Assembly (NCBI GenBank): GCA_030248065.1
Contig: JASAMV010006242.1
Coordinates: 1 to 64,000, forward strand
Source of the DNA: Rhynchonema sp. JSB1_4
Lineage: Eukaryota > Nematoda > Chromadorea > Monhysterida > Xyalidae
Length of the DNA: 64,000 nucleotides
Reading direction: 5' to 3'
In this document: positions 37,487 through 63,800 of the stretch, piece after piece
Position numbering within the stretch: position 1 is the stretch's first letter
Layout: each line of letters opens with the position of its first letter
Translations under genes and position numbers: made by a program
The notes under the pieces: generated by a model
What the model was told of the DNA's origin: nothing
Databases searched by the model: none
The model's input: the letters and a program-made list of their open reading frames with translations, nothing else

Positions 37487-40400
37487 TCACTGCATCTCGC
37501 CTTCCAGACTTGGTTCGATTTTGTAGACGCGCGCGAAATTGTTGGCGCGCGACATCACCTGCAGAAATGTCAGTGTGAAACATCAGGCCCATTAGAACTT
37601 ACTCCACTTACACATCGACAACAACTCCCATAACCTCAGCTGCCCGTTGTGTTATCATGCCCATTATCAGTGGCCCCTGACACACATGATACTGGGCAGT
37701 GTAGTTCCTGGGGGGAGGGGGGACCCCCTAAGGTACACTAATTTCCCCGACCAAGGCACACTAGTACACTAATTTCCCCTCCGGGTACACTAATTTCCCC
37801 AATTTTTGCCTAAAATGGCCATTTTTAGGCCTAAAAAGGGCATTTTTAGGCCTAAAATGTGTGATTTTTAGGTCAATGTTCTCAAAAGTCGCCAAAATAC
37901 CCTTTTTATGAAGATTTTTTTCCAAAAAGGGGTAAAAATAGGTAAAATTTTCTACCTCAAAAAGTGACTTTTTCCTGATTTTGGGTCTTCCCCCCCTTCC
38001 CCCCCAGGGAGGCACACTAATTTCCCCTCCGAAAAAGTAGGGAGGTACACTAATTTCCCCGCCGGACCAGGAACTACACTGATACTGGGAGAGACTAATC
38101 GAACGCGCTGCCTCATTGGTGACACCAAACTGCATGTCGCGTCTGCTTGTTGGCAACAGTGTCAGTCTGCAGCGTGACTGTCATCTGGCCAAATTCTGAC
38201 AAAACTCTGTGAAGGCGGTGTGGTGTGGTCATCTCAGGGCCAGGCGCACAAAATTTAATGACAAAAATTTACCCCACCCCCGTCCCCCCAACCATGAGCT
38301 GTCCGTCGGATGTGAGATGCAGATCGCTGGCGAACGGAAAGTGCGGGGCGTAGACGCCGTTGAATGACTGCTGGAACTGCAGCACACATTGGAAATCGCC
38401 GACGTTGTTGAAGAACTGCAATGAACATCATTGGTGAAGTTGATTGATTAGCGGTCGCACTGATGAGGGCCTAGTGCACCGCCGAACAGAAGTGCTCGAA
38501 CAAGTCTCCGTGTATCCCCGACCCTATGGAACGTTGAATGTTATGGGAAGGAAATGAATATGCTGGACAAACAATTTTCAATTGCTGCAACACGCCAATT
38601 CAGCATTCCGAAATGTTTCGAAACTCGCAATTACGAGATTGGGGAAATTAGTAAGGCAGTCCGGTTAAAATCGAAAAATCTAGCACAATATTCGATACTA
38701 ATCTCTTGTTGAGCAGTACACTTCCAAAATATCAGCCGCAGTAAACGATTCAGCAGCCGAGCAACCTAACGACAGCGGCCCACAGCAGTGAGAGCTTAAT
38801 GTTCTGTCATGCCCAAAACAACCAAACCGCTTTGATCACCAGCGCACCTGCACACGATTGTTCTTGGCGTCACCGACGATCAGATTCGCATCGTTGTCGA
38901 ACGAGACGCCGCTGGGGAAGTTGAGATGACCGGGCGCGGCGCCGGGCCGACCATGCCCGATCTGGTGCATGATGCTGCCGTCGAAGCACGACACCACGTA
39001 CACCGTGTGCATGCCTGCAACAACGCATTTGCATGTGTGGGCACGCGGCGGGCACATGGCCGCATCATATGGTACTTGGCTTGAAAAACTCATTCCATAA
39101 CTGAACAGAAGAACATACATGTTTGAAGAAATGTAGATGGCCGCTAAAGTGCAAGTGGCCGATGCTCCGTCAAGTTTGACCTTCGCGTCAAGTTTGACCT
39201 TCGAAATTAATTCTCCAGCACAAAACTACCAGAACAAAATGCCGCAGACAGAAAAATTGGAAATCTGGCACCCATAACTTCACAGTGCTGAAACTCAGGC
39301 GACCCGCGCAGTTTTGACTTTGCTTTAGATGCTACAATATCACAGACGTTGGCCAGTTTCGAAACAAGCTCCCCTAACGCAGACGCACCCAGATCACTGA
39401 TGGCGAGACTGCCATAGCTGTGCCAGTCCATAAATCGCGGTTTCGACTGTCGCGCGCTGCCGCCCTCATACTTGAACTGTCTGAGATTGGCATCATTGGC
39501 CGGATCCACGAAATTCACCGTCGCCCGTTCGCCGTGGAATCCGTTCGCGATCGTCACCAGACACTCGGTGCGTGCGCCCGGCTCGTCGAACTCCTCGAAC
39601 GCACCCGTTAAACCTGAATCGGTCAATGAGAAAGAGAGTGTAGTGAAAATGATTGGGCATCATGGTAGGGTATACTTGCGGGCCGGAAAAAACCGTTTTT
39701 TTCAAAAAAAACCGAAAAAAACCGTTTTTTTCCGAGGCCCGGAAAAATACGTTTTTATTTTTCCGGAAATTTTTCCAAGTGGCAACTTTTGGAAAAAAAC
39801 GGTTTTTTAACCAGGTAGGGTATGTTAGGCGTTCTGATTTCGACCGTGGAAAAGTTTCCAAACAGATAAAATTTCCGCCGGTCGAAATGTGGTGGCCCTT
39901 AGCCACAAAGCTTCATTTTTCTCGTCAAATGCTTTGACCATCAGAAACACGGACCAATGAAGCAATCATCATTGTGCCGCGCAGAACGCACTTTTTTCGG
40001 TGTTTACATCAATCTTTAGTCCGAAAGATCTATCAATCATCAATCAGAAAATGTTTCAGGAACTGTGTAAACAAGCATTAATGTATCCAGCATCAACAAG
40101 TGTCGCTCATCAAATTGGTTGTGAGATCATTCAAATCATAAAACAAAAAAACTAGGAAAAACTGAAGAAAACGCACACATCAATTTGTCATTGGCCGAAG
40201 GCGAGACGAGATGTCGCAGATTCTGGATCTCTTCAAATGTTTTCGAGTCGAATATCTGAAAAAGAAAGGTACACTCGTTCAGCAAAACCGGCAGAAAATG
40301 TTTCACTAAGCGCTCGACAGTTGCCAGAGCTGTGGTTTAGGCAAACCACGCCAACACGAGCCCGATTTCGGAGGCCGAGTGCTTGCAAAACGAATAGAAA

Positions 40401-43400
40401 GAGAAAATCCTAACGTGTAAGTTTTCCCAAATCAGCAGCCACGTATGAATGTTTCACTAATCTGCCACCTCCGAAATCGGGCTCGTGTTGGCGTAGTGTT
40501 ACCACAGTTTTGTTCTCATTGTATGTAAAAGTAAAATGTCCTAACTCGCTGCCGAACCACTGAATTACGCCCAATAGTTAATATCCAGTCCAAAACCGAA
40601 AACCATACATTCGGACAGCAAACACACGCCATTTGCCAGCCAGCCAGGCAGCTGTGCGCAACGTTTCAGAACTGCGCGTGGATAGCGTTCGGGTTTAGAG
40701 GTGGACATTAACTATAGGGCTGGGGCGTATTTTACTGTACGGTGGTGAATTTAGAGATTCACGCGCAGTAACATCCAAGTTTTATTCATAAAAAACTGTA
40801 AAACTTTATATCATAACAATTTCATTCATAAGAAAGTCAAAGCAACTAACCTTGACGGTGAGGTCGTCCTTGACAGCGAAACTGGCCATATCGGTCGAGA
40901 AAGCGACGGCCGACGGTTGTTTGAAGCCGACCTTGGCACCGCCGAATGAAACGGATGGCTCGTCGCCCGTAGACTCGAACACGCGCACCTGATGTTACCA
41001 TATATCAAGTGTTAAGTGTTAAAAACTAAGTACAACTTTGTTTTGATTTTAAAAAAGGTAACCGCGCGCCAAAATGTGAACAACCGTTACGTCAATCAGA
41101 CCAAATTATGAACCGACTTTATTCTCGAGCGTGTCGCAGACAATCCATTGTTTGGCCAGTTCATTGTAGTTGCAGCCGATCGGTTTGTTCAGATGACCAA
41201 AATGACGCACCAGTCGACATTTCAGACCTGTGTGGTGTGCGGGAAACATTGGAATTTAATTATGGTCTGCATTATTCATATTGACGGACATGAACGATCG
41301 GGCGGGACCCGCCAGGGTTTCACTACATATGGAGATGGAGGGTCAGGATGTACAGCGTTATAAAACATCACATAATATTTGACTGAAAGAGAAAACAAAT
41401 TAAAAACTGTTATTGTCAATGACAAAAGGCATACCCTTGACTTTGGTCGTGCTGCGCTGCATCATTTCAACCAGATTCGGTCGTTGATCCACCGTTATCT
41501 TCACCACCGACGAGTCACGTGACACATCCGCAGTTGCCAGCTGCATGATAAGAAAATAATCTAATCCTGGATAAATATACCCGACTATACTAGACGATTC
41601 CACAGCAGAATCACAGACCTAAACAATAACGAAGCACGCAAGCTGCCCTATCGTACCTGTTCGGACGTGCCCGATTGATTGACGCGTTCCAACGCGATCG
41701 CAGCGGCAGCAGGATTGGCGACAAAATTGATGGGTTGATGTGCCACACCGATGATGTCCAGGGCCACATTGATGGGCGACACAACCGTCGATGGCGGGTC
41801 ACCCCAGGTCGATGACGTGGATGCGTTGGGGGAATGCGATGCACACGCGTGCTCACTGCCGGCACGGGCGTGCGATGGAGACGCGGTAGTGGCTGGCGCT
41901 GCATGTTGAATAGAACAAGCGTTTGAATGGGAAAGAAGCAAACGACAAAATCAACAGGTAATAGCAACGATACAAAATGTTGCGCACCACACAACAAAAT
42001 GTATCAATTACGGAGATGAGCACTGCGGCAAAGACAAGGCAAAAGCAAACTAGTGGTCGAAAGCAGTGTGGTGGCAGGCCAATCGACCCAAGATACCCTA
42101 GGGGGGGGAAGGTTTCGGACTTACTCGAGATACCCCCCAGAGGCTACCCAAGATACCCCTATGGTCCGTCAAAAGGCGAAAAAAGGCCGTTTTTTGCATG
42201 CAATTTTACTGCAAAATTGGCCTAAAAATGGGTATTTTTTGACATTTTTGCCGAAAATTGGCCTAAAATGACCATTTTTGGGTGTCTGCGCGCGGAGCGC
42301 GCGATTTTTGGGGGTCCCGAGGTCGAAAAACACCTATTTTTGCCTTTGAAAACCATAAATCGACTTACTCGAGATACCATTTGGGGTCGGCTCGAGATAG
42401 ATACCCTTCCCCCCCCATCCCCCCCCTAAGGGTTGACTCGAGATAGATACCCCTTAGGGGGGGGAATCCCCCCCCCCCATCCCCCCCCAGCCACTACAGT
42501 GGTCGAAAGTGCCTTTATGCTGGTCGAAATCAGTATCCCAACCACCCAATCAAATCGCCAGATGCGTCCCAAAAAAGTTTTGCTTTACCGCAGTCGTAGA
42601 GCGACAAAGTTGATATGGTTTATAATTTGGGCGCTTTTTTGCGTTATTCTTAAAGCAGCATCTTTGGCCGGCCAAAAGACACGGAAGGCGGACACAAACA
42701 ATAGGGTACGACAACAAGAATAAAACAATCACCAACGGTGCATCTTTCCATCGACAATGGCCACTGGTGACGGACTGATTGGTTGGAACGTACTGGTGAA
42801 CGGTGGTTGATTGAAGAAACGCTGGCCATGGCCACTCGACGACGATGCCGACGTTGAATAGTCGACGGATGCAGCTGACGATGGCTCGACGGTGGCTACA
42901 GCAAAAAAAGCTACAGTCCACCCTCTGCATAATGATCCTCTTCGTGCAGTGAGTGAGCAATCTTCAACTTGCCATCATTCTCCTAATCGCCTAGTATCAA
43001 CTTACGCTCAACTTTGACCATATCGAGTGCGCTGACGGGCAGTCCAAACTGGAATCGTGCATTGTTGTTGTCGGGCGAAGAATGGTTCACATCCGACTTG
43101 TTGCGACCGTCGTAACGATTCATTGGCCTCTCGCCCGGTACCAACTCCGGGAACTGGCTGTACGTGATCTGCACATTGGGGTAAATTTGGGATATATTGA
43201 GAGTTAGCGATTTAACGATTACGCTTGGACCGCGTTTACCGAACTCATAATGTACGGCTTTAAAGTTGGTCGCAAAACGTAGTTGAACTGAACCCAAAGT
43301 CCTCATAAAGCATGATTTAACAAACTACAATAATAACCATCATTTGTTTGGTTGGATCGATCGATTTCGGGGCGATGCAATCACGTATCTGTCGCATATC

Positions 43401-45833: not shown

Positions 45834-46238
45834 CGCGCGCTGTTGGTTTGGGGCACTTTACAATAATTGGTTTGGTTTCGGTTAACGTTTGGTGATTGCT
45901 CGAATTTAGTTGCCTGCAACATCAAGAACGGATCTGGTGCAAACTACGGACTTTTTTAAGATGATCGATCACACACACAACATAATAAGCCGATAGGAAA
46001 TCGACCTTGGTCACGACAACCAAATCATCTTCAAGGAAAAACAGCAAAGAAACAAAGCAGTGACTCGAAAGTATTTTTTGCGAAGCACAACAACCCACAG
46101 CTGAGACAAACAATATCAGTAATCCAACAGTCGTTGGTCAAGAACATTATGGCAAGGCCTAAAACACAAATTCGCGCGTCTGAAATGCGAAAGCATGAGA
46201 TCAGAAGAAACAGCAAAACAATCAGCAATAGTATGTGA
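45834..46238. other. Spacer between the NHL gene and MAD2L1BP
   Basis: 405 bp separating two same-strand genes. Nothing recognised. It should hold the MAD2L1BP 3' end and the NHL-gene promoter or a missing 5' exon. Confidence 0.4.
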
Positions 46239-49200
46239 TCACTCGAGTTTGTAGCCAAACACCGGTGAATTGAGCGCGAACCACGCATGATCATCGATGT
46301 CAACGTCCCAGTCTGAAACTAGCGAATAAAGTATCTGGATCAAAAAATAAAAACAAGAAAGACAGAACCAACGCCCAGTCGACCGACATTACTGTCTGTC
46401 AAAAAATAAAAACAAGAAGAACAAAAACAACGCCAAACTATTTAGTTGAGTATTCGTCGACCGACACTGCTGTCCGTGATTGATCACAAAATGAGCAACA
46501 CCAGTCTTCAGCTTGACTAATCTCGTGTCACTTGGCAGTGCAAAGGATTCCCTGGATTGAAATTGGTCAATTAAATAACGAACAATGAAGAAAATGACAA
46601 AATTTTATTAGGAAAATGTGAAATATGACCTGGATTCAAATCCCGTGCCCTGCACTGTCGTATCCTTGTGAGCGTACAACAGCACCTGCATTTTTCTGTA
46701 CGAAGGAATGGCGGGTAACTTGCGGAAATTGGACCCGACGCCGTTACCGACCAGTGTCGCAGCTGTTCGTTGGAAATCACTGAAAGTATGTTGGTGCAGT
46801 TGCATGCAGCTCAAGATCCACATCATTTGTGACCATTTTGTGTTGAAAAGGAAAATCGTGAAGAAGTTTAGCGTTTTGTGGCACATTAAATCCAAGTGCC
46901 ATCGTGGTAGTTCTACGGGATACTCCGCAAACAGAACTGTGCTTATTGTTTTATCAAGCAGGAAAAACTGGAATAAACAACTCACCGAGCCTTGAAGCCA
47001 GTTGTTTCATCATGACAAAAACCGGATTGATTTGACATTTCACACATCGAGTGTCGAATGCGATAAATGTCGGACGGGCTTTGCAGCGATGGACCAAGTA
47101 GCAGCACAACCTCCCGGATTTTGCCAATGTTGTGCGAACGAAAGACGTCTTGCAGCGATTGACGGCACTAGAAAGTAGGTCGCACAATGACCATATAAGA
47201 ATTCATCAAATCTATCCTGATTTTCACGTTCAGTCACTCTTAACCACTGTGCTATTTGTGATTCTCACAAAACATTTTCACCTGAAAGTAATCCGTGCGG
47301 CGTTAGCTTTTACAAGCACGCAACACGGCAACAGTTTTTGTTTGTCGAGCGGTATAAGCCAGTTTTAGCCAAACAATTCTTCATTTCGACAAAAAAATGA
47401 CTTCGCCGTAAGGCCGGAGTTTCGAAAAACATTGCCTGCCAGTGTTGGAGAATGTCCAAAAGGGGCAAAAATCGGTCAAATTTTCTCCTCAAAAAGTGAA
47501 TTTTTCCTGATTTTGGGTCCTCCCCCCCCCCCCTTCCCCCCAGGGAAATACACTAACCGCCGCACGGAAACAGGGGTAGGTACACTAACCGCCGCGCCGG
47601 ACCAGGAACTACACTGCTTCGCCGTAAGGCCGGAGGTTCGAAAAACACCCCAGGAGGGGGGGGGGGGGTAGCCCCCCCAGTACAGTAGGTTTCCCCCCTC
47701 GCCTGGTACAGTAGGTATCCCGACCGATGTTTGGCATGGTACAGTACAGTGTAGTTCCTGGGGGGGAAGGAGGGGGGTCCCCCTCGGGTACGTCTGTTCC
47801 CCCTCCATGGTACGCCTGCCCCACTGTTCCCCCTCCGGGTACGTCTGCTCCCCCAATTTTTACCTAAAATAGGCAAATTTTGGCCTAAAATAGGCATTTT
47901 TTGGCCTAAAATGGGTGATTTTTAGGTCAATGATGTCAAAAGTCGCCAAAATACCCTTTTTATGGAGAATTTTTTCCGAAAAGGGGCAAAATGAGCCAAA
48001 TTTTCGACCTCAAAAAAGGACTTTTCTCCAAATTTGGGTCCTCCCCCCCCCTTCCGGGTCCCTCCCCCCCTCCTTCCCCTCCCCAGGTGGGTACGTCTGT
48101 TCCCCCTCCGACAAAAGGGGGGTACCGTCTGTTCCCCCGCCGGACCAGGAACTACAATGTTACAGTCGGTACCCCCCCCCCCCGATTTTCACCCCGTTAC
48201 AGTAGGTATCCCCCCGATTTTGCCTCAAAAGTGCCAATTTTTGACCAAAATGGCCAAAATTAGTGTAAAATCAGTGGTTTTTACCTCAAATTACCCCAAA
48301 TTCGCGCGCTACGCGCGCAAATACTACGTTTTCACACGATTCCACACATAATAAACACATTAAAAATTTTCACCCCAAAACCTAACCCCCCAAACCCCAC
48401 CCTAGGTACATAACCCCCCCAGGCCATCGGCTCTGGTACAGTAGGTATCCCCCACTCTCCGAGCGCGGTACAGTAGGTATCCCCCCTCCAGAGTACCTCC
48501 AACACTGTTGCCTGCCATGTGTTATGTCGTTCCGTTTCCGTATCTGCACATCGTAATTCTTGCCGCCCCCAACCTCGACTCAACCAACCAGAGATTAGGA
48601 TCGGGCCGGGTAACCTCGGCCCGGCCCGACTGACCAAAACTACGGCCCGGCCCGATTTTGGGGTCAGTGCTGTGGCTGGGGGGCCCTCCCCAAAGGCACA
48701 GTATCTCCTCTCGCCAGTACGGTATTGTGGCCACCCGCGCTGAGGTACAGTATTTCCCCTTCTCTGGTACGGCATCTCCCCTAATTTTTCCAAAATTTCC
48801 TCCCAAAAGTACCACTTTTGGCCCAAAATTGGTCAAAATTGACTAAAAGTGCAACAATTCGCATTTTAACCTATAAAAATTGAATTCTCGCGAAAGTAGT
48901 ATGGTAAAGTATCTCCCCCTAAAATTTTTTCCCTCCCCCACCCCCAAATCTGATCCCCTCAAATTCTGGGTACAGTACCCCGGTATCTCCCCTCTTTTTG
49001 GCCGCAAGGTACAGTATCTCCCCCTCAGAAGTAACCACAGCACTGTTTGGGGTCAAAGGAAAAAATGGTCAAAAAAGGCCAAAATTTCCAAAAATTTTCT
49101 TGCTGAAGCACGTTTAGTGGTTCGGTTTCTGTGAACCAGGTCCATTTAGGCCCCACAAAAAATGTGCACATATTCTGCGCGCAGCGCAATTTTTGGTCAA

Positions 49201-52200
49201 AAGCCGTTTTTGGCTCGCAATTGAGCAAGTCCGGCCCGGCCCGAACCTCCAAATCTCCGGCCCGGCCCGAACCTAACGTCCAAAATCCCGGCCCGGCGCG
49301 GCCCGAAGCTCGGGCCGATCCTAAGTTCTGGAAACCAACACAACACCGGCAGTGTGGTGGCAGGCCAATCGACCCAAGACACCCTAGGGGTATACTTGCG
49401 CATTTTTCCGCAAAATATATTTTTGAAAAAAAACCGTTTTTTCCGAAAAAAAACCGTTTTTTTCCAAATATTTTTCCAGTACTTAAGGATACCCATGGTC
49501 CAAAAACGGCTATTTTGGAGAAAATTTTGTCGGGAAATGGCCTGAAAGAGGCTAAAAATGCACTTGGAGATTAAAAAGTGCTCATTTTGAACTGTTTAGC
49601 ACCGATTTACATTGGTTTTGACAACATCCTTTCGCAACCTTTGAAAATATTTCGGAAATTGGAAAAAAAACCGTTTTTTTCCAAAAGTTGCCACTTGGAA
49701 AAATTTCCGGAAAAATAAAAACGTATTTTTCCGGGCCTCGGAAAAAAAACGTTTTTTTCGGTTTTTCCGAAAAAAAAACGGTTTTTTTCCGGCCCGCAAG
49801 TATACCTAGGGGGGGAAGGTTTCGGACTTACTCGAGATACCCCCCAGAGGCTACCCAAGATACCCCGTCAAAAGGCGAAAAAAGGCGTTTTTTGCATGCA
49901 ATTTTATTGCAAAATTGGCCTAAAAATGGGTATTTTTTGACATTTTTGCCGAAAATTGACCTAAAATGACCATTTTTGGGTGTTTGCGTGTTTGGATTTT
50001 TGGGGGTCCCGAGGTCGAAAAACACCTATTTTTGCCTTTGAAAACCATAAATCTACTTACTCGAGATACCCTTTGGGGTCGGCTCGAGATAGATACCCTT
50101 CCCCCCCATCCCCCCTAAGGGTTGACTCGAGATAGATACCCCTTAGGGGGGAATCCCCCCATCCCCCCCAGCCACTACAGTGAACCGGTAAACTGAAATC
50201 TGGAAACTGAAACCAACGCTCAAGAATTGTCTGACAAATTTTGTGCGACCTCGATCTCGATGGCAGCGTTGTGGTAAGCCGTTCTCAAGATGCAGCGGAC
50301 CGTCGTTGGAAACGCCTTCGACGGTAGATTCACAAGAAATGGATGACAAAAGCGCATCACCGATCTGGAAGAACAAAGGTATTTGAATTGTTGTGGCGAA
50401 AAATACGGTAATTCTGACAAAACCGGCACTGCTTGGAGTTGGGATAGGGACCCAGTGCTTAAGGATTGAGCGTCGAGGTTTTTGATTGCAGGCAATGGTG
50501 TAGCAGGGGGGGTGGGGGGTCCCCCCCCCCCAGGTACAGTAGGTAGGTTGCCGCCCCTCGCCTGGTACAGTAGGTAGGTTGCCGCCCCTCCCCTGGTACA
50601 GTAGGTAGGTTGCCGCCCCACCTAACTTTTCACCCAAAACATTCATTTTTGGCTTAAAATTGCATAAAATTAGCATATTTGTCTGCAAATAGGCGAAAAA
50701 TCGCGCGCTGCGCGCGAAATTAGTGTTTTAGCCCTCATTTTCTTCAGTATTTAGACATAAAAAATTTCGGTTTCCAGATGACCCCCCCCCCCAAGTGGTA
50801 CGACCCCCCCCTAGCTCGGCTGGTACAGTAGGTACCGTAAAAACCTAAATACAAGGGGGGGCTCTATTAATTCACTGCAGTGTAGTTCCTGGGGGGGAGG
50901 GGGGGTCCCCCCCCTCGGGTACGTCTGTTCCCCCTCCTGTGATCGTGGTCATCCGTTGACCTGTGCTACAGCCCGTGAAGTAGTGTGTGTTACACTGACT
51001 GAGGCTGTGTGTGTGTACGCGCTAGTGTGCGTTACACGTTATACCTTGTTCGTGCAGTCGTTTGGTGCTGCATAGGTATAAGAGCACGCTCAAGCACGCC
51101 AGCCAGACGGACGCGTAGTTCAGTTGGTTAGAACAGCCGGAAGACGCAGGTTCAACCCCTGCCGTGTCCATATGTTTGGTGGTGTGGCTTGGAGGATCAC
51201 ACTCCGAGGTACGCCTGCCCCACTGTTCCCCCTCCGGGTACGTCTGCTCCCCCAATTTTTGCCTAAAATAGGCAAATTTAGGCCTAAAAAAGGCATTTTT
51301 AGGCCAAAAATAGGTAAACTTTAAGTGAAACCTCCAAAAAAAACGCCAAAATACCCTTTTTATAGGGGATTTTTCGCAAAAGAAGGCAAAAATAGTCCAA
51401 TTTCTCGACCTCAAAAAATGACTTTTTTCCGTCCCCCCCAAATTGGGACTTCCCCCCCAGGTAGGTACGTCTGTTCCCCCTCCGAAAATAGTGGAGGGTA
51501 CGTCTGTTCCCCCTCCGGACCAGGAACTACACTGATTCACTGACCCCATTTTCAAAAAATTATTTTCGTTTCTCAGCGAGAGCGTTCCAAATCCGGTGTT
51601 ATTTTCGATCGATATTCCGAGGGGGGCTCTATTCCGGGGGGGGGGGCTCTATTTAGGTTTTTACGGTAGGTTGCCGCCCCGCATTTTGGGTGGTACAGTA
51701 GGTTGCCGCCCCGCCTGCGGCCTGGGTAGCTACACCACTGATTGCAGGCACAGGCTGCACAAGCCTGACCCCAAAAAAACCACAATACTTTAAAAGGTAA
51801 AATTTAGTGGCTTTTGTCCAAAAATTACTAGCTCTTTTCACCCTTGCAAATTTTGTGGCACAAAACACTAAGTGCTAAAATTTACTAGCGTCTGAAAAAA
51901 GTTACCAGCTAAAAAGCTAAATTTTAATCCAAAAAAACCAAGCTTAACAACCTCCGACCTTTGAATTCTTTCGTCGAAAAATTCACTATTCAAATGAAGA
52001 AAGCAAAAACTGACCACTTCGGGTACAATTGAGCGCTCGTACAGCAAATATCGAATGATTTCATCGAGTATCAATGGCGTGCTATGCACACACATGCATT
52101 TGTTGTAGTTCAATTGTACAACTGTTGTGTTGGACTCAGAAAATTCTTCGTCATTCAGCATTTCTGTTTTCGAGAGCGAGACGCCTGCTTTTCGGTGCCC

Positions 52201-52272: not shown

Positions 52273-53103
52273 ACGATTTTATGTCATCAGCCCAGAGGAC
52301 GGGGAGCTAAATCATGAAAATAAGAACGAAATAACGAAACAAAACAAGTTATTCCCCAAGGCCCAAACATGCCACGCCAAAACAAAATTAGTGAAAATAA
52401 TTCCGTTCTGGTGTTGGCCGCACGTTTTTATGCAGTTCGTGTCGAAAGAAAAGAATCAATCGCTGATTGGACGCAACTCTCAGCTGATTGCCCAGGAAAG
52501 GATTTTGAATCCACACTTCGTTGCGAGACCTGACGTTTTGCTCGTGCTTTGCTATAGGTGAGAGAACTTCGTGTCACAAGCTGGATCAGTCTCTAGCAAA
52601 CCGGTTGTAAGCGACTGCTTTGTTGCAGATTTTCCAATTTCAGACTGGGTGCCCATTTTTTAATTAATTTGGATTAATTGGATTGGATTATGTGTCTGGG
52701 TCTGTTTTCGTGGTTTGTTGTGTGTGGTGTGAGAAAGTCGCATTTTGCTTCCGGTAAAAACCCGTTTTTTCAGAGCCGGATACATTTTCAAGATAAATTT
52801 CCGGAAAAACTACCGAACACGTGCCAATAGGTCAGGTGATTTACTTTTTCGAAAAAATGTGTTTTTTCGGTCGAAATCGAAAATAACGTAGAATTTTCTT
52901 GAAGGTTCCATACCATGTCATAAAATCGTTTTAAAAGGGACCAAAACACCTTCAAAAAAGCTTTTTTCGTCCTAAAGCACACCTGAAACCCTTATTGGGC
53001 AATAAACAAGCCGAACACTACTCGGTCTAAAACTAAAAATTGGTGCGGTCTGCGGTGTTGGTGTATCGTGTATGTTTTTGCTCCTGCCTGTATCAGAGGT
53101 ATG
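52273..53103. other. Start of the MAD2L1BP-FAM21 divergent intergenic region
   Basis: No gene seen. It should hold the MAD2L1BP promoter. The 57851 side should hold that of FAM21. Between them, 53104-57672 is transposon. Confidence 0.5.
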
Positions 53104-53680
53104 CAGTGTAGTTCCTGGGGGGGGAGGGGGTCCCCCCCCTCGGGTACGCTATCCAGTGTAGTTCCTGGTCCGGAGTAGGCCTGGGCACAATACCACTTTT
53201 GACACCCAATACCAATACCCAATACCAATACCGGCCCTGTACCAATACCCAATACCCAATACCAATACCGAATTGGGGACCTAATACCAATACCCAATAC
53301 CAATACCGGGCGAGACCCAATACCAATACCCAATACCAAATCAATACTACTGAAGTGGTTGGTATTGGGTTTGGTATTGGGTTGGTATTGGTATTGAGTA
53401 TTGGGTTGGTATTGGTATTGGGTATTGGGTATTGGTCTTAGTATTGGTTTGGTATTGGGTTTTTGGTCTGGTATTGGGTTGGTATTGGGTTTGGTATTGG
53501 TTTGGTATTGGGTTTTGAGTCAGGTATTGGGTTTGGTATTGGGTTTTTCTGGGTTAGTATTGGGTATTGGTTTTGACCCAATATCTGGGCAAACCCAATA
53601 CCAATACCAGGCCAGCTTCAATACCAATACCCAATACCAGAAATAGACCCAATACCAATACCAAACACTGGTATTGGTAT

Positions 53681-54569
53681 CAGTGTTGGAGGTACTCTGG
53701 AGGGGGGGATACCTACTGTACCGCGCTCGGCGAGGGGGATACCTACTGTACCAGAGCCGATGGCCTGGGGGGGGGGGGTTATGTACCTAGGGGGGGTTTG
53801 GGGGGGGGGTTAGGTTTTGGGGTAAAAATTTTTAATGTGTTTATTATGTGTGGAATCGTGTGAAAACGTAGTATTTGCGCGCGTAGCGCGCGAATTTGGG
53901 GTAATTTGAGGTAAAAACCACTGATTTAACACTAATTTTGGTCATTTTGATCAAAAAATGGCACTTTTGAGGCAAAATCGGGGGGGGATACCTACTGTAC
54001 CGGGGTGAAAATCGGGGGGATACCTACTGTACCATGCCAAACATCGGGGGGGATACCTACTGTACCAGGCGAGGGGGGATACCCATAGTAGTGGCTGGGG
54101 GGGGGTTGGGGGGGGGGTTACCCCCCCCCCTCTCAGTACTTACCTACCACAAAACCCGAGGGGGGGGGGGTTGGGGGGGGGGGGTTGAGTACTTACCTCT
54201 CACAACTCCAAATCATACCTCTCACAAGCAATTTTATACCTTTTTAAGGCAAAAATCGGTGTTTTTCGACCTTATTTTCCCAAAAATCGCGCGCTCCGCG
54301 CGCAAACCCACCCATTAAACCTATTTTTAGGCGATTTTCGGCGAAAATTTTGAAAAAGTACTGTTTTTACCTCAATTTTTGGCCAAAATTGTATCACAAA
54401 AACGGTGTTTTTTCGCCTTTTTGGGTGACCAAAATCGTACCTCTCACGCTTCCGGTCCCAACCCCGCATCATACTTACCTCCCACACATGGGCCTGCCAC
54501 TACACTGGGGATACCTACTGTACTGGGGGGGGGGCTACCCCCCGAACCCCCCCCCCACCTCCAACACTG
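53681..54569. mobile_element. hAT-like element E2, inserted in S
   Basis: CAGTGTTGGAGG to CCTCCAACACTG with the perfect duplication attggtat (53673-53680 and 54570-54577). Inverted relative to E1, same words (GGGGGATACCTACTGTACC) and core palindrome at 53877-53894. Interrupted by F. Confidence 0.9.
54084..54507. mobile_element. hAT-like element F, innermost, inserted in E2
   Basis: CATAGTAGTGGC to GCCACTACACTG with the perfect duplication gggatacc (54076-54083 and 54508-54515). Words GTACTTACCTCTCACAA. Core palindrome GCGCGCTCCGCGCGC at 54287-54302. Confidence 0.9.
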
Positions 54570-55307
54570 ATTGGTATTGGTATTGGGTGGTATTGGTATT
54601 GGGTATTGTGCCCACCCATAGTCCGGAGGGGGAGATAGCGGACCCTCCGTTTTTTTCGGAGGGGGAGATAGTGTACCCCCGAGGGTTTTTGAGGTAGAAA
54701 ATTTGACCTATTTTTGCCCCTTTTTGGAAAAAATTCTTCATAAAAAGGGCATTTTGGGGACTTTTGAGAACATTGACCTAAAAATCACGCATTTTTGGTA
54801 TAAAAATGCCCATTTTAGGCCTAAAAATGCCTATTTTAGGCAAAAATTGGTGGAGATAGTGTACCCGGAGGGGGAGATAGGGGGATAGTGTACCACCTGA
54901 GAGGGAGATAGCGTACCCCGAGGGGGACCCCCCCTCCCCCCCCAGGAACTACACTGACGCTATCTCCCCCTCGGGTGGTACACTATCCCCCTATCGCCCC
55001 CTCCGGGTACACTATCTCCCCCAATTTTTGCTTAAAATGGCCATTTTTAGGCCTAAAATGGGCATTTTTAGGCCTAAAATGTGTGATTTTCTGGTCAATG
55101 TTCTCAAAAGTCGCCAAAATACCCTTTTTATGAAGAATTTTTTCCAAAAAGGGGCAAAAATAGGTCAAATTTTCTACCTCAAAAAGTGACTTTTTCCCAA
55201 ATTTGGGTCTTCCCCCCCCCTTACCCCCTCGGGTGGTACACTATCTCCCCCTCCGAAAAAAACGGAGGGTCCGCTATCTCCCCCTCCGGACCAGGAACTA
55301 CACTGCA

Positions 55308-55920
55308 GAGGTCGCAATCGGGGCACTCCTGGAGTATAGCGGACCCAATAGAAAAATGCCTGGAAACGCTTGGAAAACCCACCCAGGGGTTTTCGATGGT
55401 GCTGAAAACGAATATGACATCGTCTCCAACCCAATCCAACTGAAAAAAAAAACCGGAAAAGTGAGAAAACTTTTTGGCGCCAAAGAGTGTGAGCTGGCTA
55501 CCGTAAAAACCTAAATAGAAGGGGGGCTCCATAATCCACTCGGATATGTGGGCCGGATACAACAACGTCGCGTTTCTCCCCGTCGCACCCCTCTACCAGC
55601 ACCTGCGCGTCAACCACACCCAGCATTTCGTCGACACCATAAACGCCTAACAGCACCATAAACGCCTCGGTCCACTTACCCGAACCCAACGGCCCTCATC
55701 AGGGCCACCAAAACGAAGCCATGTACTGAAGGATTTTGAAAGGGACGTACCTGAAAGAGTTGGATTGGGTCGGAGGGGAAGAGTAGATATGAAAGAGTTG
55801 GATTGGGTTGGAGACGATGTCATATTCGTTTTCAGCCCCATCGAAACCCCTGGGTGGGTTTTCCAAGCGTTTCCAGGCATTTTTCTATTGGGTCCGCTAT
55901 ACTCCAGGAGTGCCGCAATC
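55308..55920. repeat. Inverted repeat with 120-bp arms (K)
   Basis: 55316-55443 and 55797-55917 are inverted copies (GGAGTATAGCGGACCCAATA against its complement, and CCCACCCAGGGGTTTTCGAT). The loop includes an I-type left end at 55501 and a minus-strand frame (KWTEAFMVLLGVYGVDEMLG) of unknown origin. Confidence 0.75.
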
Positions 55921-56134
55921 GGGCCGGGCCGGGCTGCGATTTTGGGCTCTTGGCTCGGGCCGGGCCGGGCCGGAGATTTGGAGGGTCGGGCCGGGCCGGG
56001 CACCCCGGCCCGAAGCTTCTAAAGTGACTTATTTTACTGAAAAAGTGGGCATTTTTTCGTCAAAAATACTAAAATTTCTGACGGATTCGGCAAGTAAGTG
56101 ATCCAATGTAGTACTACTTGGTCAGGGTGCTGAC

Positions 56135-57050
56135 CAGTGGTGTCGTTGGGGGGGAAGGGGGGGTTACCCCCTAGTATCCGGTATCCGATCCGGTATCTTG
56201 ATTTTTTCACCCAGGGGTATCCGGTATCCTGGACTTTCTGTCCAGGGGTATGCTACATTAAAATTTTTCCGAAAACCGTAAAAATCGCCTATTTTTACCT
56301 CTAAAATGCTCAAAATCGCTTGCTGGCGCAAGCATAACCAGGGTAGTACTTGGGGGGGGGGGTGGGGGGGGCTCCCCCCCAAATTCATCTATCTATCGTC
56401 AACACTTTTTGATTTCATCTATCTATCGTCAACACTTATGGGCAAATCTATCTATCGTCAACAAATTCTGGGAACAATCTATCTATCGTCAACACATTTC
56501 GACCCCAAAATGGGTATTTTTGCCTCAGAATGGCTCAAAATCGGTATTTTTTGTCCCAAATAGGCAAAAAATCGCGCGCTACGCGCGGATTTAGTGCATC
56601 TTAGTACATTTTCATTAATATTTACACATTATTACCAACTTAGTACACTATACTATACCTTAATTTTTGGCGACCCCCCCCCCCACCATCTATCTATCGT
56701 CAACAAGTTTGGGTCGACCCCCCCCCCAGATTTCGGACTTGGGTCATCTATCTATCGTCAACACATTTCGGGTCCCAATCTATCTATCGTCAACACCCTG
56801 ACCAAGTACTACACTGAGCATAACCCCAAAAAATGACCGTTTTTTGCGCTTCCAACACCAATTTTGCTCAATTTTCCTCTAAAAAATTGACCTTTTTTTT
56901 GAACAACCCCCCTGGGTATCCGAGATTTTTTATTTTGGGAGGCAACCCCCCTGGTATCCGAGATTTTTCATTTTGGGTATCCGGTATCCGAAAATTTTGG
57001 ATTTTGGGTATCCGGTATCCTGACTTTTTGTTTTCCCAACGACACCACTG
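56135..57050. mobile_element. hAT-like element D, word GGTATCCGGTATCC, inserted in C2
   Basis: CAGTGGTGTCGTTGGG to CCCAACGACACCACTG. Flanks gtgctgac and gtgttgac match at seven of eight. Interrupted by C1. Confidence 0.82.
56339..56816. mobile_element. hAT-like element C1, word ATCTATCTATCGTCAACAC, inserted in D
   Basis: CAGGGTAGTACTTGG to CCAAGTACTACACTG with the perfect duplication agcataac (56331-56338 and 56817-56824). Eight words in plus orientation at both ends; core palindrome ATCGCGCGCTACGCGCG at 56572-56588. A second copy of the family that surrounds it. Confidence 0.9.
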
Positions 57051-57851
57051 GTGTTGACGATAGATAGATTGGGACCCGAAATGTGTTGACGATAGATAGA
57101 TGACCCAAGTCCGAAATCTGGGGGGGTCGACCCAAACTTGTTGACGATAGATAGATGGTGGGGGCGTCGCCAAAAATCAAGGTATAGTATAGTGTACTAA
57201 GCAGGTAATAATGTGTAAATATTAATGAAAAGTACTTAGATGTAGCGCGCGATTTTTTGTCTATTTGGGACAAAAAATACCGATTTTGAGCCATTTTGAG
57301 GCCAAATTACCCATTTTGGGGTCGAAATGTGTTGACGATAGATAGATTGTTCCCAGAATTTGTTGACGATAGATAGATTTGCCCACAAGTGCTGACGATA
57401 GATAGATGAAATCAGAAAGTGTTGACGATAGATAGATGACTTTGGGGGGATCCCCCACCCCCCCCCAAGCACTACCCTGAAGTGATCAGTATTGTCTATG
57501 TGACGACTTTTTCATGGAAAACAATGAATTTTCAACCAAAAAAATAGGTTCAAGACTTCGCAAAAATTATGACAAAAATTGGGTTAAAATCTGAGCTGAA
57601 AATTCGGGCCGGGCCGGGCCGGAGATTTGGGGGCTCGGGCCGGGCCGGCCAAACCCGGTCCGATTGCGACATCTGGCCTGTATTCCTCAACTGCTTCAAC
57701 TTTATTCGAAAAAACCGTTTTTTTTCAAAAATGTAACCTACTGACTCATTAGTCACTGATTTTTGTGCTTGTGCCGATCTTGCCTGTTTTCAAGTTGATT
57801 TCATTCAGACAGATGAACGAGGTTTACCAAGAACAAGATTCGTGATACGAA

Positions 57852-60800
57852 ATGTCGGACGTTCGGGAAAACCTCAACCAACTCACGGCTCCGTTGGGTC
57901 GCTGGACTTTGGCCGACGACGCAAAGGTTCGATTCCATTACCACCATGCTCACTAAGGGGTTATTTTTTCAAAATAGGCTAGTAGCAAAAGTTAGGAAAG
58001 TAAAAAATTTAGTAGCTTTTTTCTGCGGAAATGCCAATTTACTAGCTTTTTTGGCCCAAATATAAAAGTTTAGTAGCTTTTATGCTGCTAAGTTTGAAAA
58101 TTTACCAGCTTTTCAAAAAATTTAGTAGCTAAAAAGCTACTAAATTTGGTTAAAGAATCCATGTAGCTCACATCGGTGGCTTAGTCGGTGTGCGGTCACC
58201 AACCCACCACCACCGGATCAGTGAGCACCCGACCCAGATCTTTGTTCTCCTATCGTTGCCCCCGTGATAACCTGTTTTCGCAAACGGACACATCGATGCG
58301 GCACTGGGGAAATATTTTCTGGCCCATCAAAATCAAACCGAAGCGAGCTGGTTTAAAAGTGCTTCAGATGCGTGACAGTTTCACAAAGTTCGTCAGCGTG
58401 CGTTGAGATCGTTCCTCCAGCTCCAGCCGTGCGCTTGTTATGAAGCGGCACACTTGCAGCACAACTGATGGAGCTGTGACTTTTCAAGCGTGTTGGTGTA
58501 TTATATCCACTCACTCACAGGTGATCAACGCGCTCGAACAATCCTCGTCCACAATCTTCACAGCGACCGATGATGTTTCACGTCAATTGTCCAACCTCGA
58601 CCATCTGGCAGTCACGTCGAACGTCGAGTTCTCCAACTGCCAACATCGACTGCTCGCATTGGCCGCGACGAAATTTGTCGAAAACGTTCGTGCATGTCTG
58701 TGTGATTGTCTAAATCTTGATTTGTTTTCATGCGGAGTAGGGATGTACCTAATATGTGCGACAATCGCGTGAACCATGTGGTTCTGGTTCACAAGTGGTT
58801 GCTTGAATATGACACATGAACTGACAGTGTTTGTTACGGTTTTTCGTTTGTTATCATGCCCATCAACTAGCCAACAGTTTGACTCTCGTTTAGGCCGAAT
58901 TCATAATGGATACGCATTTGCGCGTTTGCGCGTCAACCTGGCTAGACTTCGACACTACATGCTGATGCGCAAACGCGCATGCATTGTGAATCCGGCCTTA
59001 CGACTGTTTCGCAATTTTTCGATTGATTTTCAGCGCGTGTACGACGAAGAAGTGATGCTGAAGAAACCGGCCGAGAAACAGGTACATTTCCACATTTTTT
59101 GTTGACAAAACTGTGAAGAAAAATCGACAATTTCAGCCACAAACGCGTGAACAACGCGAGCGCCGTCTGGTGGCGCAATGCAATCGCGCAGTCAACCGAG
59201 GCTGCCAGCTGCTGACGTCGCATTTTCACAAAATCGAGATCAAACCGGAAGATTTTGACGAGGATGATGACCCGACATTCCAGCCAGCGCCCGTCTTCGA
59301 ACCGAAAGTGAGTTCTTTCAGAATTTTTTGCTCTGTTTTAATCCAAAATGCACGACATAAACCTGGGTGCATCTATCTGTTTTGTTTGTAATTAATGGTG
59401 GTTGGAGATTTGGTCACTCACTCACGGTCACAGTTGAATCTTCGGCCATCGCACAATTTATCCAAACCAGGCAATGAACACTGGCTTCACCGACCCGCGG
59501 TGCCCGAATCAATCAGCGCGAATGCACCAAATAGCCACCGATCCCAACAAACACAAAATTAATTATTACAGGACAAATACGCCGTGCGTTCGCTGCCACA
59601 TTTGGTGGGCGGTCGTCGATTCTTAATGTCGCCATCGGCCGGCCTCGATGAGGACGAAGAGGAACGAGCCGAGCAGCAGGCACAATCATCGATGGAGGAA
59701 CGCGATGTGACTGTGAATTTAGACAGTCCCGTGCACAGGGTGAGCGCGGTGTCGTGCGTGGGGTGCTTTCACATTTACCAGCTGCAGTTTATGCCCACTG
59801 CCTGCACTATATGTGTCCATGTGCAATTTGCACTACTTCTGGCCGCAGGTAGCTCTTGGGCCGGGCTAAACTTGGTGAACTTCTTTATTCGCATTCACCA
59901 TGGAGCCTTTTTGTCAGATTCTTCGGAATTTGTTCACGTCAGCGACTTGTTTCGGCCGGCGTCAGAATTGTTTTTTTGGCTCCCGCGGAACAAGCTAGGC
60001 TAGACGTCTCATAGTCATATCGCTAAACGGATTGCTGATGGACGTCTGGTTAATTATTTTCCATTTTGTTCTCATAGTCAAATGTGTTTCCTCAGGTACC
60101 CCCGACACGCGCTGCAACCGACAATCAGCAGTCCTCATCCGTTCCTCAGTCCATCGTTCCCCCGGCGCCCGTGATCCCCGCGGGCAAACTAGTCCCACCA
60201 GCTGGAGGGTCACAACCCCAGCAGCAAGGGTCAGGCCTGGGGCCCAGTGCCCAAGCGCACCCCCAACCGTCGTCAGCCAGCTCATCGCTGAAAGCGGCAT
60301 CCGACTCGAGTGGTCTGTTTGGTGACGTGGATAGTGACCATGAAGATCTGTTTGCCACTGCGTCACATCATGCCAGCAGACAAGCGACGCAGGATATGGT
60401 GCGTCCTCGCTATCTTTTAGCTTCTGTGAAAAGAAGTGGCTGCATAATGTGTGAACCAAATTTGAATGTTGGCCGGCTGTTTGGCCGGAAATGTTTCGTC
60501 CAGCATGCATATAAAGGCGCACAAATCAATACACGCTAATAAGTCTACTCCAATTCCGTCTGAAAACAGCCATGAAATGGGCATCAAATACAAAACTTCA
60601 TAAAAATATGCACAATGTATGGGCAAACTACACCAACACGAGCCCGATTTCGAAGGTGGTGGGTATTCAAAAGGAATAGAAAGAGAAAATCATCATGCTA
60701 CATTTTGTATTCTTCAGCGTGTAACATTTTCCAAACCAGCAGCCAAGTCAGAATGTTTCACCATTCTACCAGCTGCGAAATCGAGCTCATGTTGGCGTAG

Positions 60801-63800
60801 TTTGCCTTTATCTCAATTTTTATGCTTCAGGTCGATGCCAGGTCTCCAAAACGGCCGGAAGCTCGACCATTCAGTGGCAATGCGAGTGTGCAGGCAGAAC
60901 TGGCCAAAAAGTTGGGTGTTGTGCCGAGCACTGCGGCGTCGTCGAGCGTCACTGTCACCGATGAACATGTCGATAAAATTAGTGGTACGTTTGCTTTTGG
61001 GTGTAGTGTGTTAGACCAGGATTAAATTCGTCAAAAAACTGGAACATGTACTGTGCCAGATTTGGACCCATCTTTCTGGGTTAAAATGGTAAAAACGGTA
61101 CAAACTGAGCACAAAATACAACAATTTTTTTGTTTTGTTGGATAAACTTCCTATCGCTCACAGTCACATTTCCACTTAGTTTCCTTTGTCGTGTTGTTTT
61201 AGGTATACCAATCACTACATAACATAATCTCTTGAATAGTAAAAAAATGGAAAGAGGGCTCACTGAAGCGTTGATATGTCACCTGCCGTACTTTGAAATG
61301 GGGTGAAAAACGACAATTGATAATTAGATTGTTGCCGTCGGATTTTATTCAATGTAAAAAGCCACTAGTTAGTTTCAGATGATGATGAAGACATATTTTC
61401 TCCCACGTTTGTGCCCCCTGTACCCAAGCAACGCACATCCACACAACAACAACAACAGCCGCCCAAAGATTTTCTGTCGCAACTCAATCGAGTCATTGGC
61501 AATCAAAGTTCTGGTTCAGCTGTTGGTCAAACAGTTAGTGGGCGTTTTTTTCATTTTTGGATATGTGACGTGTCTGTCAAATGTAACACTGTTTGACCTT
61601 TCGGTGGTAAGATGCTCAATATGGCTATAGACAGGATTGTTGCTCTGCGTGAAATGAATATTTTTCAGTGTGGCCAAAAATTCCTTTCCCCCGCTCCTGG
61701 ATTTTTTTGACCATTTCTTGCGCCTGAAGACTTAGAATTTGCAGCTACACCTTTCACATTTTGCCAAATGAAATGCTAGGTGCACATTGCACCTAAAATT
61801 CTGACATCTGGGTTGAACTCAGTGTTGTTCGTGGTCCGGAGGGGGATATAGCGGGCCCCTCGTTTTTTTCGGAGGGGGAGATAGTGTACCCCGAGGGAAA
61901 GGGGGAGAAGACCTGAATTCAGGAAAACGTTAATTTTTTGAGGTGAAAATTTTGACCTATTTTTTGCCCCTTTTTGGAAGAAATCCCTATGAAAAGATAT
62001 TTTGGCGATTTTTCACAACATTGACCTAAAAATCACACATTCTGTGCCTACAAATGTCCATTTTAGATTTAAAATGCCTATGTTAGGCAACAATTGGGGG
62101 AGATAGTCTACCCGGAGAGCGGAGGGGGAGATAAGGGGTAGTGTACCACTTGAGGAGGAGATAGCGTACCCGAGGGGGGCCCACTCCCTCCAGGAACTAC
62201 GCTGGTGCATACGGTAAACTCCACTCGGGTTCCGATTATGTAACCACAAAGTCAACACACCTAATTTGACCGTATCAGCTGCAGCCATCAACAATCGTCC
62301 CTCCGGGTGGCACATCTGCGCCTGACCGGTCCGAGACCAGGATCGAGCCTCAGCCTGTAATTGTGCAGAAAAGTATATTCGATGACGATGACAGCGACGA
62401 TGGAGGGGATATATTTGGCAGCAATGTTCTTGGATCCGTTAGTTATTATTGTTTGTGGTTTGTGAATTCAGTTGTTTTGGGTTTAAGAGGGATATAGATC
62501 GCTGAAGGGACTCAAAAGACAATGGAACTAGAATATGCCAGCACTGTGTAGTTACTGGTCCGGAGGGGGAGATAGCCCACCCCCCCCCCGTTTTTTCGGA
62601 GGGGAGATAGTGTACTCCGAGGGGGAGGGGGAAGACCCAAATTCAGGAAAAGACACTTTTTGAGGTGAAAATTTTGACCTGTTTTTGCCCCCTTTTTGAA
62701 AAAAACCCTTTTAAAAGGACAACATTGACCTAAGAATCGTACATTTTAGGCCTAAAATATACATGCTTAGGCTTAGGCTTAAAATTCAGTTAAAACTCTC
62801 TCTCACGAAGGGACCTCAGATCTATTGTGTGCATGTACACAGGTCACAGCCCACTAAACAGGCATCTAACCAAAATGGGCCTCAGAGACGACCCAACCTG
62901 CACCACTTGTGGCGAAGAAGAAACAGTCGAACATTTTCTGTGTAAGTGCCTCGGCCTGAAAAACATCCGAAAAGGAACCTTGGGCGCAGAAACAATCACC
63001 CTGGATGAAGCCCGCGACACTAAAGTGTCCTGGGTGGCCGAATTTATTAGGGAGACTACACGTTTTGATTAGAATTTCGGCATAGTGCAGCATAGAAATA
63101 GGAACAGTCCTGTCACAGTTAGCACACATCACACAATGAACGGGGATCTGTTCTACACAGAATAATGGTCTCCAAGTTGCTGGGCCTGTGTAAAAATCCC
63201 TACCATGGGGTTCCACACTGGCTGCCCACGAATCATCATAGGCTTAAAATGCCTATTTCAGGTAGAAATTGGGGGAGATACTGCGTCCAGAGGGGGATAT
63301 TAGGGGATAAGGTACACCTGAGGGGGAGATAGCGTACCCGAGGTTTTTTCACATCTTTTGTATGTGTTTTAAAGAAAAAAAGTTGCAATGAAGAAGGTGC
63401 TTCCTTTTAAATCTATTTAGTGGCAGGAATAAAGTTGTCTCTTATTTGCACATCTCGTCGCGTGATTACACTTTTCGGTGAACATTCCTGCCGGATTTGA
63501 TAGATGTGTCTTTTCAGATCAGGTCCTCCGCCGCGCCTTCCACGCAACCAACGATCCCCGCCGTGTCTGAGCGAACTGTCTCCCCGGCTCCTACAGTACG
63601 GTTGGTCAATTTAGAGTACCTGTTTGTTGTTTTGGCCGGTTTTTCGTTTCTCGTCTGAAACTCCGCAATATGTTATCATTTCCAGCGCCACAACCACGCT
63701 ACCATCCGCCACCAAGCACGTGTCCTTGTTTGGCGACAGTGATGCCTCTGATGACGATGATATTTTCGCGCCCAGACCCTTCAAGCCCGTTGAAGCCACA

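What the first reader, a model, noticed from the sequence alone, without database searches (positions are those of the whole stretch)
37697..63344. Swappable-word transposons: constant frame, element-specific subterminal word
Elements sharing the same TIR (CAGTGTAGTTCCTGG) and the same GGCCTAAAA core carry different subterminal words, yet each element repeats its own word at both ends: GGTACACTAATTTCCCC in A1, GGTACGTCTGTTCCCC in A4 and A7, GGTACACTATCTCCCC in A5, A6, A8 and A9, GGTACACTAACCGCCGC in A3. Elements with other TIRs fit the same GGTAC-variable-CCCC form: GGTACAGTATCTCCCC in N and GGTACAGTAGGTATCCCCC in E. Subterminal repeats bind transposase in known hAT elements such as Ac. Within-element homogeneity with between-element difference suggests that the word is replaced as a set, either by conversion between ends or by switching to a different transposase. 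I know of no described family with this behaviour.
Basis: partly seen in the sequence, partly recalled or inferred. Interest (0 to 1): 0.9.

Follow-up and report, generated by a model that had tools for sequence, protein, structure and literature searches.

The report
Jumping-gene family with swapped end words
Thousands of copies of a small jumping-gene family in this animal genome share the same tips but carry one of four short repeated words near both ends, and word sets and middle sections have sometimes been reshuffled between them, which may show how such elements change the protein that recognises them.

Summary
The tip CAGTGTAGTTCCTGG occurs 9,703 times in the 204-Mb genome (reversed control 2) and bounds hAT-type miniature elements, mostly 340-420 bp, with 8-bp target duplications. 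Five word slots, all in one orientation, are filled by one of four word sets: 292 of 293 scored slots carry their element's own set; left and right agree at 85 of 87 paired sites.

Swapping is partly supported. Words and cores mostly travel together, but two copies with different perfect duplications carry W3 words around a W1 core, and W1 shares linkers with W3 but a core with part of W5. W1 and W3 differ at the same four positions of all five words, while core and linkers differ little. W4a and W4b keep the words (2% different) though their cores differ by 21%. For W1-W5 and W3-W5 the linkers differ as much as the words, so there the whole end module differs.

My best reading is conversion during gap repair, plus an advantage of matched ends; one jumped copy with a foreign word (L119) speaks against a strict rule. 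No autonomous partner was found. Precedents: Galileo chimeras, VANDAL/VANC motifs. New variant of a known kind.

The parts
37697..38081 (+). A1: complete W1 element (word TACACTAATTTCCCC in five slots), TSD ATACTGGG
37732..37800 (+). A1 left word slots 1-3 (slot 2 compound)
37801..37989 (+). A1 core (21-bp repeats with GGCCTAAAA, then unique)
   Evidence: inside the W1 core clade
38010..38060 (+). A1 right word slots 4-5, same orientation as the left slots
47430..47616 (+). A3: right part of a W3 element (word TACACTAACCGCCGC), left end missing; start approximate
47747..48159 (+). A4: W4a element (word TACGTCTGTTCCCC), TSD 6/8; middle of the core W3-like (by eye)
48665..49045 (+). N element: other tip (CAGTGCTGTGGCTG), GGTACAGTATCTCCCC-type words, TSD 8/8
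50878..51534 (+). A7: W4b element with a tRNA-like insert between slots 1 and 2; TSD ATTCACTG
53104..55305 (+). W5 element with W1-like core (W5b), interrupted in slot 1 by the next element
   Evidence: structure, by eye; core 55023-55211
53154..54956 (-). W5 element inserted in the slot-1 word of the element above (TSD ACGCTATC), itself interrupted by other elements
   Evidence: by eye
53681..54569 (.). CAGTGTTGGAGGT-tipped pair with TSD 8/8 holding E-type words GGTACAGTAGGTATCCCCC (minus strand); may be composite
61820..62204 (-). Diverged W5 element, TSD 3/8
62542..63344 (-). Decayed, interrupted element with W5-type words (63322-63338)
   Evidence: by eye

Best explanation
This is one lineage of hAT-type miniature elements. 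The tips, linkers and five word slots at both ends behave as one matched recognition module, and the ~190-bp core is an exchangeable spacer. The words are probably binding sites for the DNA-binding part of whichever hAT transposase (or helper protein) mobilises the element. Four word sets were found. Shown: the sets are homogeneous within elements; they vary less than core and linkers inside each class; cores and, once, a single slot have been exchanged between classes; and at least one exchanged lineage went on jumping. Inferred: exchange happens by ectopic conversion or interrupted gap repair with template switching after excision, helped by the shared GGTAC heads and the core repeats; a new word set comes to fill all five slots because slots convert one another and because copies whose two ends match are mobilised better.
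For: Slots: 292 of 293 own class; left-right 85 of 87. Words against core: W1-W3 20/60 v 10/188, W1-W5 17/60 v 7/188, W3-W5 22/60 v 9/188, but W4a-W4b 1/59 v 39/188; contrast of W4a-b with W1-W5 p=4e-9. Constraint: within-class diversity of words P1-P4, linkers, core: W1 .021/.048/.071, W3 .048/.059/.070, W4a .026/.033/.085, W4b .021/.025/.055, W5 .026/.027/.050. Exchange: L108/L120 (W3 words, W1 core, two different perfect TSDs); W5 words stand before a W1-type core start at 369 places, and the five such W5b cores read fall with W1 cores (93/89; consensus 4 of 189 different), while the linkers put W1 with W3 (100/100) and reject W1+W5 (p=0.010); E043 and E057 have W1 words and cores outside the main W1 core clade; E008 (W4 words) has a W3-like middle core, E028 joins W4a and W4b cores (by eye). 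Slot level: L119, a W1 element with a W3 word in slot 3, slot 2 deleted, perfect TSD. hAT: TSD 8/8 in 43 of 67 elements, T commonest at position 2 and A at 7 (0.42, strands pooled, so the two are one measurement). hAT-domain elements of this genome carry their own word arrays at both ends (28 of 30 loci). In Hermes, BED domains of the transposase bind subterminal repeats (PMC10368747, passages).
Against: No transposase with this tip was found. L119 shows that a copy with one foreign slot can jump. Copies with fully mismatched ends and testable flanks number only two (E021, E053; TSD 2/8 and 1/8); with L119 counted as mixed, the TSD difference from 55 of 65 matched copies is not significant (p=0.08). 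Linkers differ as much as words for W1-W5 and W3-W5, so a change confined to words is clear only for W1-W3. The core data do not firmly reject W1+W3 as one group (p=0.10), and they do reject W1+W5 as one exclusive group (p=0.028), L108 with W3 words lying inside it; the AU tests were made on groups seen in the tree and on recombining sequences. Slot-specific fixed variants (CCGCCTC in W3 slot 3, GTCTGCT in W4 slot 3) show that slots are not being homogenised continuously. C-rich words may mutate differently from an A/T-rich core.
Confidence: 0.6

Rival explanations
1. Ordinary subfamily history: four masters diverged, words drifted in concert inside each master by slippage or conversion without function, and rare ectopic recombination made the few mosaics.
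For: Words and cores mostly co-segregate (6 changes, shuffled 33). Slot-specific variants are inherited clonally within classes. The mixed-end copies E021 and E053 lack matching TSDs, as expected of recombination after insertion.
Against: Words vary less than core in 5 of 5 classes, and W4a/W4b keep words while cores differ 21%: drift does not predict that. L108/L120 went on jumping after exchange.
Confidence: 0.27
2. The words are not transposase sites but targets of a separate trans-acting protein (an anti-silencing or helper factor, as with VANC in VANDAL elements) or of host silencing, and set-wise change is an arms race.
For: Similar to VANC targets: short repeated motifs in noncoding parts that vary strongly between related elements (PMC5735166, abstract and passages). 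Direct orientation at both ends does not suit a simple mirror-image end complex.
Against: No helper gene was looked for. hAT transposases are known to use subterminal repeats (PMC10368747, passages). The word slots sit only near the two ends.
Confidence: 0.2
3. Assembly artefact: collapsed or mis-joined repeats create the mosaics.
For: Repeats of this kind are easily mis-assembled; only one assembly was available.
Against: The recombinant core occurs at two places with different flanks and different perfect TSDs. The W5-word/W1-type core junction occurs at 369 places.
Confidence: 0.05

Closest known systems
Galileo (P superfamily) chimeric copies, Drosophila mojavensis (PMC3573991, passages read)
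   Same: Copies whose two ends belong to different subfamilies lack matching TSDs; other copies have two ends of one subfamily around a core of another; exchange proposed to found new subfamilies.
   Different: Galileo has long inverted repeats and 7-bp TSDs; exchange there involves long repeats, not short words repeated in five slots of a frame.
VANDAL elements and VANC targets, Arabidopsis (PMC5735166, abstract and passages; PMC10398659, abstract)
   Same: Short motifs repeated in noncoding DNA that differ between closely related elements and are thought to co-evolve with a binding protein.
   Different: Mutator-like coding elements (class recalled) with motifs in tandem repeats; here hAT-type miniatures with five fixed slots near the ends and no known binding protein.
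hAT elements with subterminal repeats (Hermes; PMC10368747, passages read; Ac/Ds recalled)
   Same: 8-bp target site and subterminal repeats bound by the BED domain of the transposase.
   Different: In Hermes most repeats point in opposite directions at the two ends and are 4 bp; here words are ~12-17 bp and all in one direction.
Two hAT-domain families of the same genome (T1 tip CAGTGTTCGAACGGGATC, words GATCCC; T2 tip TAGGGATCGGCGTCGG, words TCGGTG)
   Same: 8-bp TSD and one word repeated at both ends, mostly in one orientation.
   Different: Contain a C-terminal hAT domain; different tips; no change of word seen inside T1 (23 copies) or T2 (5 copies) in this sample.

Membership tests
hAT superfamily, non-autonomous (MITE) | 8-bp target-site duplication | tested here: met
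   43 of 67 elements with 8/8; 55 of 65 concordant elements with 7-8 of 8
hAT superfamily, non-autonomous (MITE) | Terminal inverted repeats of CAGTG type (type recalled) | tested here: met
   Perfect 15-bp inverted repeat CAGTGTAGTTCCTGG in 48 of 67 elements; the search itself allowed at most 2-3 mismatches
hAT superfamily, non-autonomous (MITE) | Target preference nTnnnnAn (rule recalled) | tested here: met
   T commonest at 2 and A at 7, 0.42, 43 duplications with both strands pooled; modest
hAT superfamily, non-autonomous (MITE) | An autonomous element with hAT transposase and the same ends | tested here: inconclusive
   30 best of 150 scored PF05699 places read (330 candidates); 28 lie in two other tip families and none of the 30 has this tip as its own end; the rest were not read
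hAT superfamily, non-autonomous (MITE) | Short and without a transposase gene | not tested
   61 of 67 elements are 340-420 bp, too short for a transposase gene; no frame analysis of each copy was made
Galileo-type chimerism | Mismatched-end copies lack matching TSDs | tested here: inconclusive
   E021 2/8 and E053 1/8, but L119, with one foreign slot, has 8/8; L121 untestable; p=0.08 with L119 counted
Galileo-type chimerism | Copies with matched ends and a foreign core | tested here: met
   L108 and L120, both with perfect TSDs
VANDAL/VANC-like motif system | A trans-acting protein that binds the motif | not tested
   No candidate protein examined
VANDAL/VANC-like motif system | Motif sets differ between closely related elements | tested here: met
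   Words 28-37% different with cores 4-5% different among W1, W3, W5

The most novel reading that the evidence does not exclude
Transposon ends in this genome carry an exchangeable address word. A non-coding element can leave one mobilising protein and join another by having all five word slots rewritten while tip, frame and core stay, and core segments pass between address groups. Several tip families (A, N, and the two hAT-domain families) would use the same word-slot architecture.
Probability: 0.3. Interest if true: 0.75.

Novelty: new variant of a known kind. Interest (0 to 1): 0.55.

Why it matters
How miniature transposons keep pace with, or change, the transposase that moves them is an open question. 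This family offers four word sets on one frame, with natural recombinants that separate words, linkers and core. Word dependence could therefore be tested by changing words in an otherwise constant element. The pair W1/W5b (similar core, different ends) and the pair W4a/W4b (same words, different core) are ready-made controls.

Tried and rejected
Fifth word class: looked for in 19 right ends outside the four exact patterns; none seen, two hidden by insertions. Autonomous partner near words: L034 and L038 looked promising because a hAT domain lies among words, but the domain belongs to the T2 family; in L034 that element is inserted in a W5 word (TSD ATAGTGTA). Family elsewhere: the right-end pattern CCGGACCAGGAACTACACTG gave 0 in viral contigs; no other public collection was searched with it. 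Naming the organism: one fucosyltransferase-like frame (PF17039) gave best relatives at about 39% identity, the named ones a nematode and a sea hare, so the host stays an unnamed, probably invertebrate animal. 'Mixed ends never jump' was my working claim until L119 contradicted it. Labels 'MIX' in the tree for L034, L017, L018, L068 and L093 are artefacts of insertions, deletions or of the word matcher; only L019 (E021) and L085 (E053) are mixed. One search was superseded (double counting of cores); the second half failed and was redone. Literature on set-wise word change in hAT miniatures: (20, 15, 12 and 6 papers listed; titles and openings of abstracts seen); none of those listed describes it, but most subscription journals are not held.

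Rows dropped: of 77 tip pairs 12 were left out of the alignment as nested, decayed or unassignable (E003, E017, E018, E020, E027, E029, E032, E033, E035, E038, E042, E046). E044 gave no core, and E019 and E021 were left out of the tree. The class consensus sequences were made without the two mixed rows and without seven further rows, among them those with conflicting cores (E034, E043, E044, E047, E049, E057, E070). In one search groups were chosen by hand: W1 without L021, L059, L092, L093; W3 without L074, L108; W5a without six rows; W5b from five rows. In some searches and 4 rows were left out, and L093 was relabelled W1. TSD counts of 67 leave out 10 of the 77; those of 65 leave out 12. 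In one search the W1 right-end list was typed up to contig C1406 and the W1 and W5b left lists up to C648; 94 of 181 left sites had no exact right end in range. L119 lies outside those lists. Sampling bias: L079-L118 were chosen by an exact slot-5 word plus right tip, so slot 5 and tips were left out of the comparison. L001-L008 entered no final count.
Full report
What is there. The window lies in contig C3817 of a 204-Mb genome of 5,747 contigs, animal by its fucosyltransferase-like frame (inference). The tip CAGTGTAGTTCCTGG occurs 10 times in the window and 9,703 times in the genome, against 2 for the reversed control. Of 77 tip pairs collected, 67 were kept for counting; 61 of these are 340-420 bp long and 43 have perfect 8-bp duplications. 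From left to right an element has the tip, a G-run and C-run, three word slots (the second compound), a core of about 190 bp with 21-bp repeats holding GGCCTAAAA, a C-run, two more word slots, and CCGGACCAGGAACTACACTG. The words point the same way at both ends.

Word sets. Four sets fill the slots: W1 TACACTAATTTCCCC, W3 TACACTAACCGCCGC, W4 TACGTCTGTTCCCC, W5 TACACTATCTCCCC. Exact right ends number 273, 1,219, 1,038 and 829, which is 3,359 of 4,484 right ends with any word. Nineteen right ends outside these patterns showed no fifth set; in two of them an insertion hides the word. In 63 aligned concordant elements 292 of 293 scored slots carry the element's own set, 22 being unscorable. From printed coordinates, 181 left slot-3 sites of W1, W3 and W5b were compared with right-end lists; 87 had an exact right end at 150-330 bp, and 85 of these agree. 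The two that do not are L085 (E053) and L121.

Words differ as sets. Class consensus sequences (conflicting rows left out, see Tried and rejected) differ as follows, words, linkers, core: W1-W3 20/60, 8/69, 10/188; W1-W5 17/60, 20/69, 7/188; W3-W5 22/60, 23/69, 9/188; W4a-W4b 1/59, 8/68, 39/188; tips 0/33 throughout. Between W1 and W3 the same four positions differ in all five slots, and words differ more than linkers (p=0.005). Between W5 and either W1 or W3 the linkers differ as much as the words (p=1.0 and 0.71), so there the whole end module differs, not the words alone. In W4a and W4b words are fixed and cores 21% apart. A single clock does not give both patterns (p=4e-9 for W4a-b against W1-W5). 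Within classes the words of slots 1-4 vary less than linkers and linkers less than core in 5 of 5 classes, narrowly for words against linkers in W4b and W5.

Words, linkers and cores have partly separate histories. The core tree (62 rows) puts W4 in one clade (100/98) and needs 6 changes of label with the one mixed row as its own group (minimum 4, shuffled mean 33), 5 without it: strong but imperfect co-segregation. Conflicts: L108 (E070) has W3 words in all slots and a core nested among W1 cores; L120, found by the junction pattern, is the same recombinant elsewhere; their TSDs are CTATACAG and GTAGTGTA, both perfect, so this recombinant jumped. E043 and E057 have W1 words and cores outside the main W1 clade. 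W5 words stand before a W1-type core start at 369 places; five such W5b cores were read, including the window's 55023-55211, and fall with W1 cores (93/89), 4 of 189 consensus differences. Linkers instead join W1 with W3 (100/100) and reject W1+W5 (p=0.010). Core data reject one exclusive clade for W3 (p=0.010), W1 (p=0.016), W5 (p=0.034) and W1+W5 (p=0.028; L108 lies inside), but not W1+W3 (p=0.10). These tests are approximate: groups were named after seeing trees, and the sequences recombine. Within cores, E008 (W4 words) has a W3-like middle (by eye); E001, the window's A4, reads the same, and E001, E008 and E010 form one branch (98/99); E028 joins W4a and W4b halves (by eye).

Mixed sets. 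E021 (W3 left, W5 right; TSD 2/8) and E053 (W3 left, W1 right; TSD 1/8) look like recombination after insertion; 55 of 65 matched copies have 7-8 of 8. L121 changes from W3 to W4 inside the core; its left tip is not in the fetched stretch, where another element abuts slot 3. Against a strict rule, L119 is a W1 element with one W3 word in slot 3, slot 2 deleted, and a perfect TSD. With it counted as mixed the difference in TSD integrity is not significant (p=0.08). It looks like a short conversion tract with a deletion, as expected of gap repair with template switching (inference).

Generality. The N family (tip CAGTGCTGTGGCTG) fills homologous slots with GGTACAGTATCTCCCC-type words in the window copy and GGTACCCTACCCGCCCC-type words in three others, at about 62% identity overall, with 599 exact right ends of the second kind; copies of the first kind were not counted. 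Of the 30 hAT-domain loci cut out, 28 contain elements of 1.0-1.5 kb with two further tips around the domain, 26 of 28 with perfect 8-bp duplications; both families carry their own word (GATCCC or TCGGTG) repeated at both ends, mostly in one orientation. So a private subterminal word is common among hAT elements here. None of the 30 has the A tip as its own end, so the partner of the family is unknown.

Interpretation. Shown: homogeneity, set-wise difference, lower variability of words, reassortment, and mobility after reassortment. Inferred: that words are binding sites, that conversion or gap repair does the exchange, and that matched ends are favoured. Known parallels: Hermes transposase BED domains bind subterminal repeats (PMC10368747, passages). 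Galileo shows chimeras with mismatched ends and no matching TSDs, and others with foreign cores between matched ends (PMC3573991, passages). VANC target motifs vary between related VANDAL elements (PMC5735166, abstract and passages; PMC10398659, abstract). The case combines these in hAT miniatures; I file it as a new variant of a known kind.

Noticed in passing
L029-L058 (loci): 28 of 30 hAT-domain places lie in 1.0-1.5-kb elements, too short for a whole transposase, that hold the C-terminal hAT domain; 26 of 28 have perfect 8-bp duplications; 23 share tip CAGTGTTCGAACGGGATC and GATCCC words, 5 share TAGGGATCGGCGTCGG and TCGGTG words. Why such elements are so common is unexplained.
   Followed up: partly
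window 53146-53153, L034:628-635, L119, L120: Elements are often inserted inside the words of other elements (TSDs ACGCTATC, ATAGTGTA, TGTACTAG, GTAGTGTA); 16 of 43 perfect TSDs share a 6-mer with a list of words. No genome-wide control was made.
   Followed up: partly
window 50950-51200: tRNA-like (SINE-like) insert inside A7 between word slots 1 and 2 (by eye; no tRNA search was run).
   Followed up: no
L060, L072; window 56342-56500: Another family with words ATCTATCTATCGTCAACAC ends in CCAAGTACTACACTG, a tip close to the A tip (CAGTGTAGTACTTGG against CAGTGTAGTTCCTGG).
   Followed up: no
window 49820-50170, 54110-54510, 56137-56260; L017:3477-3882, L023:5767-6207: Further families with G-runs and their own words (CTCGAGATACC, TACTTACCTCTCACA, GATACCGGATACC); GCGCGCTACGCGCGC-type palindromes occur in cores of several other families nearby (for example 48300-48320).
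   Followed up: no
window 53204-53670: Long degenerate CCAATA/TTGGTA repeat blocks in opposite orientation, apparently another repeat-rich mobile element.
   Followed up: no
window 28339-29193: Fucosyltransferase-like frame (PF17039), nearest relatives about 39% identical.
   Followed up: partly
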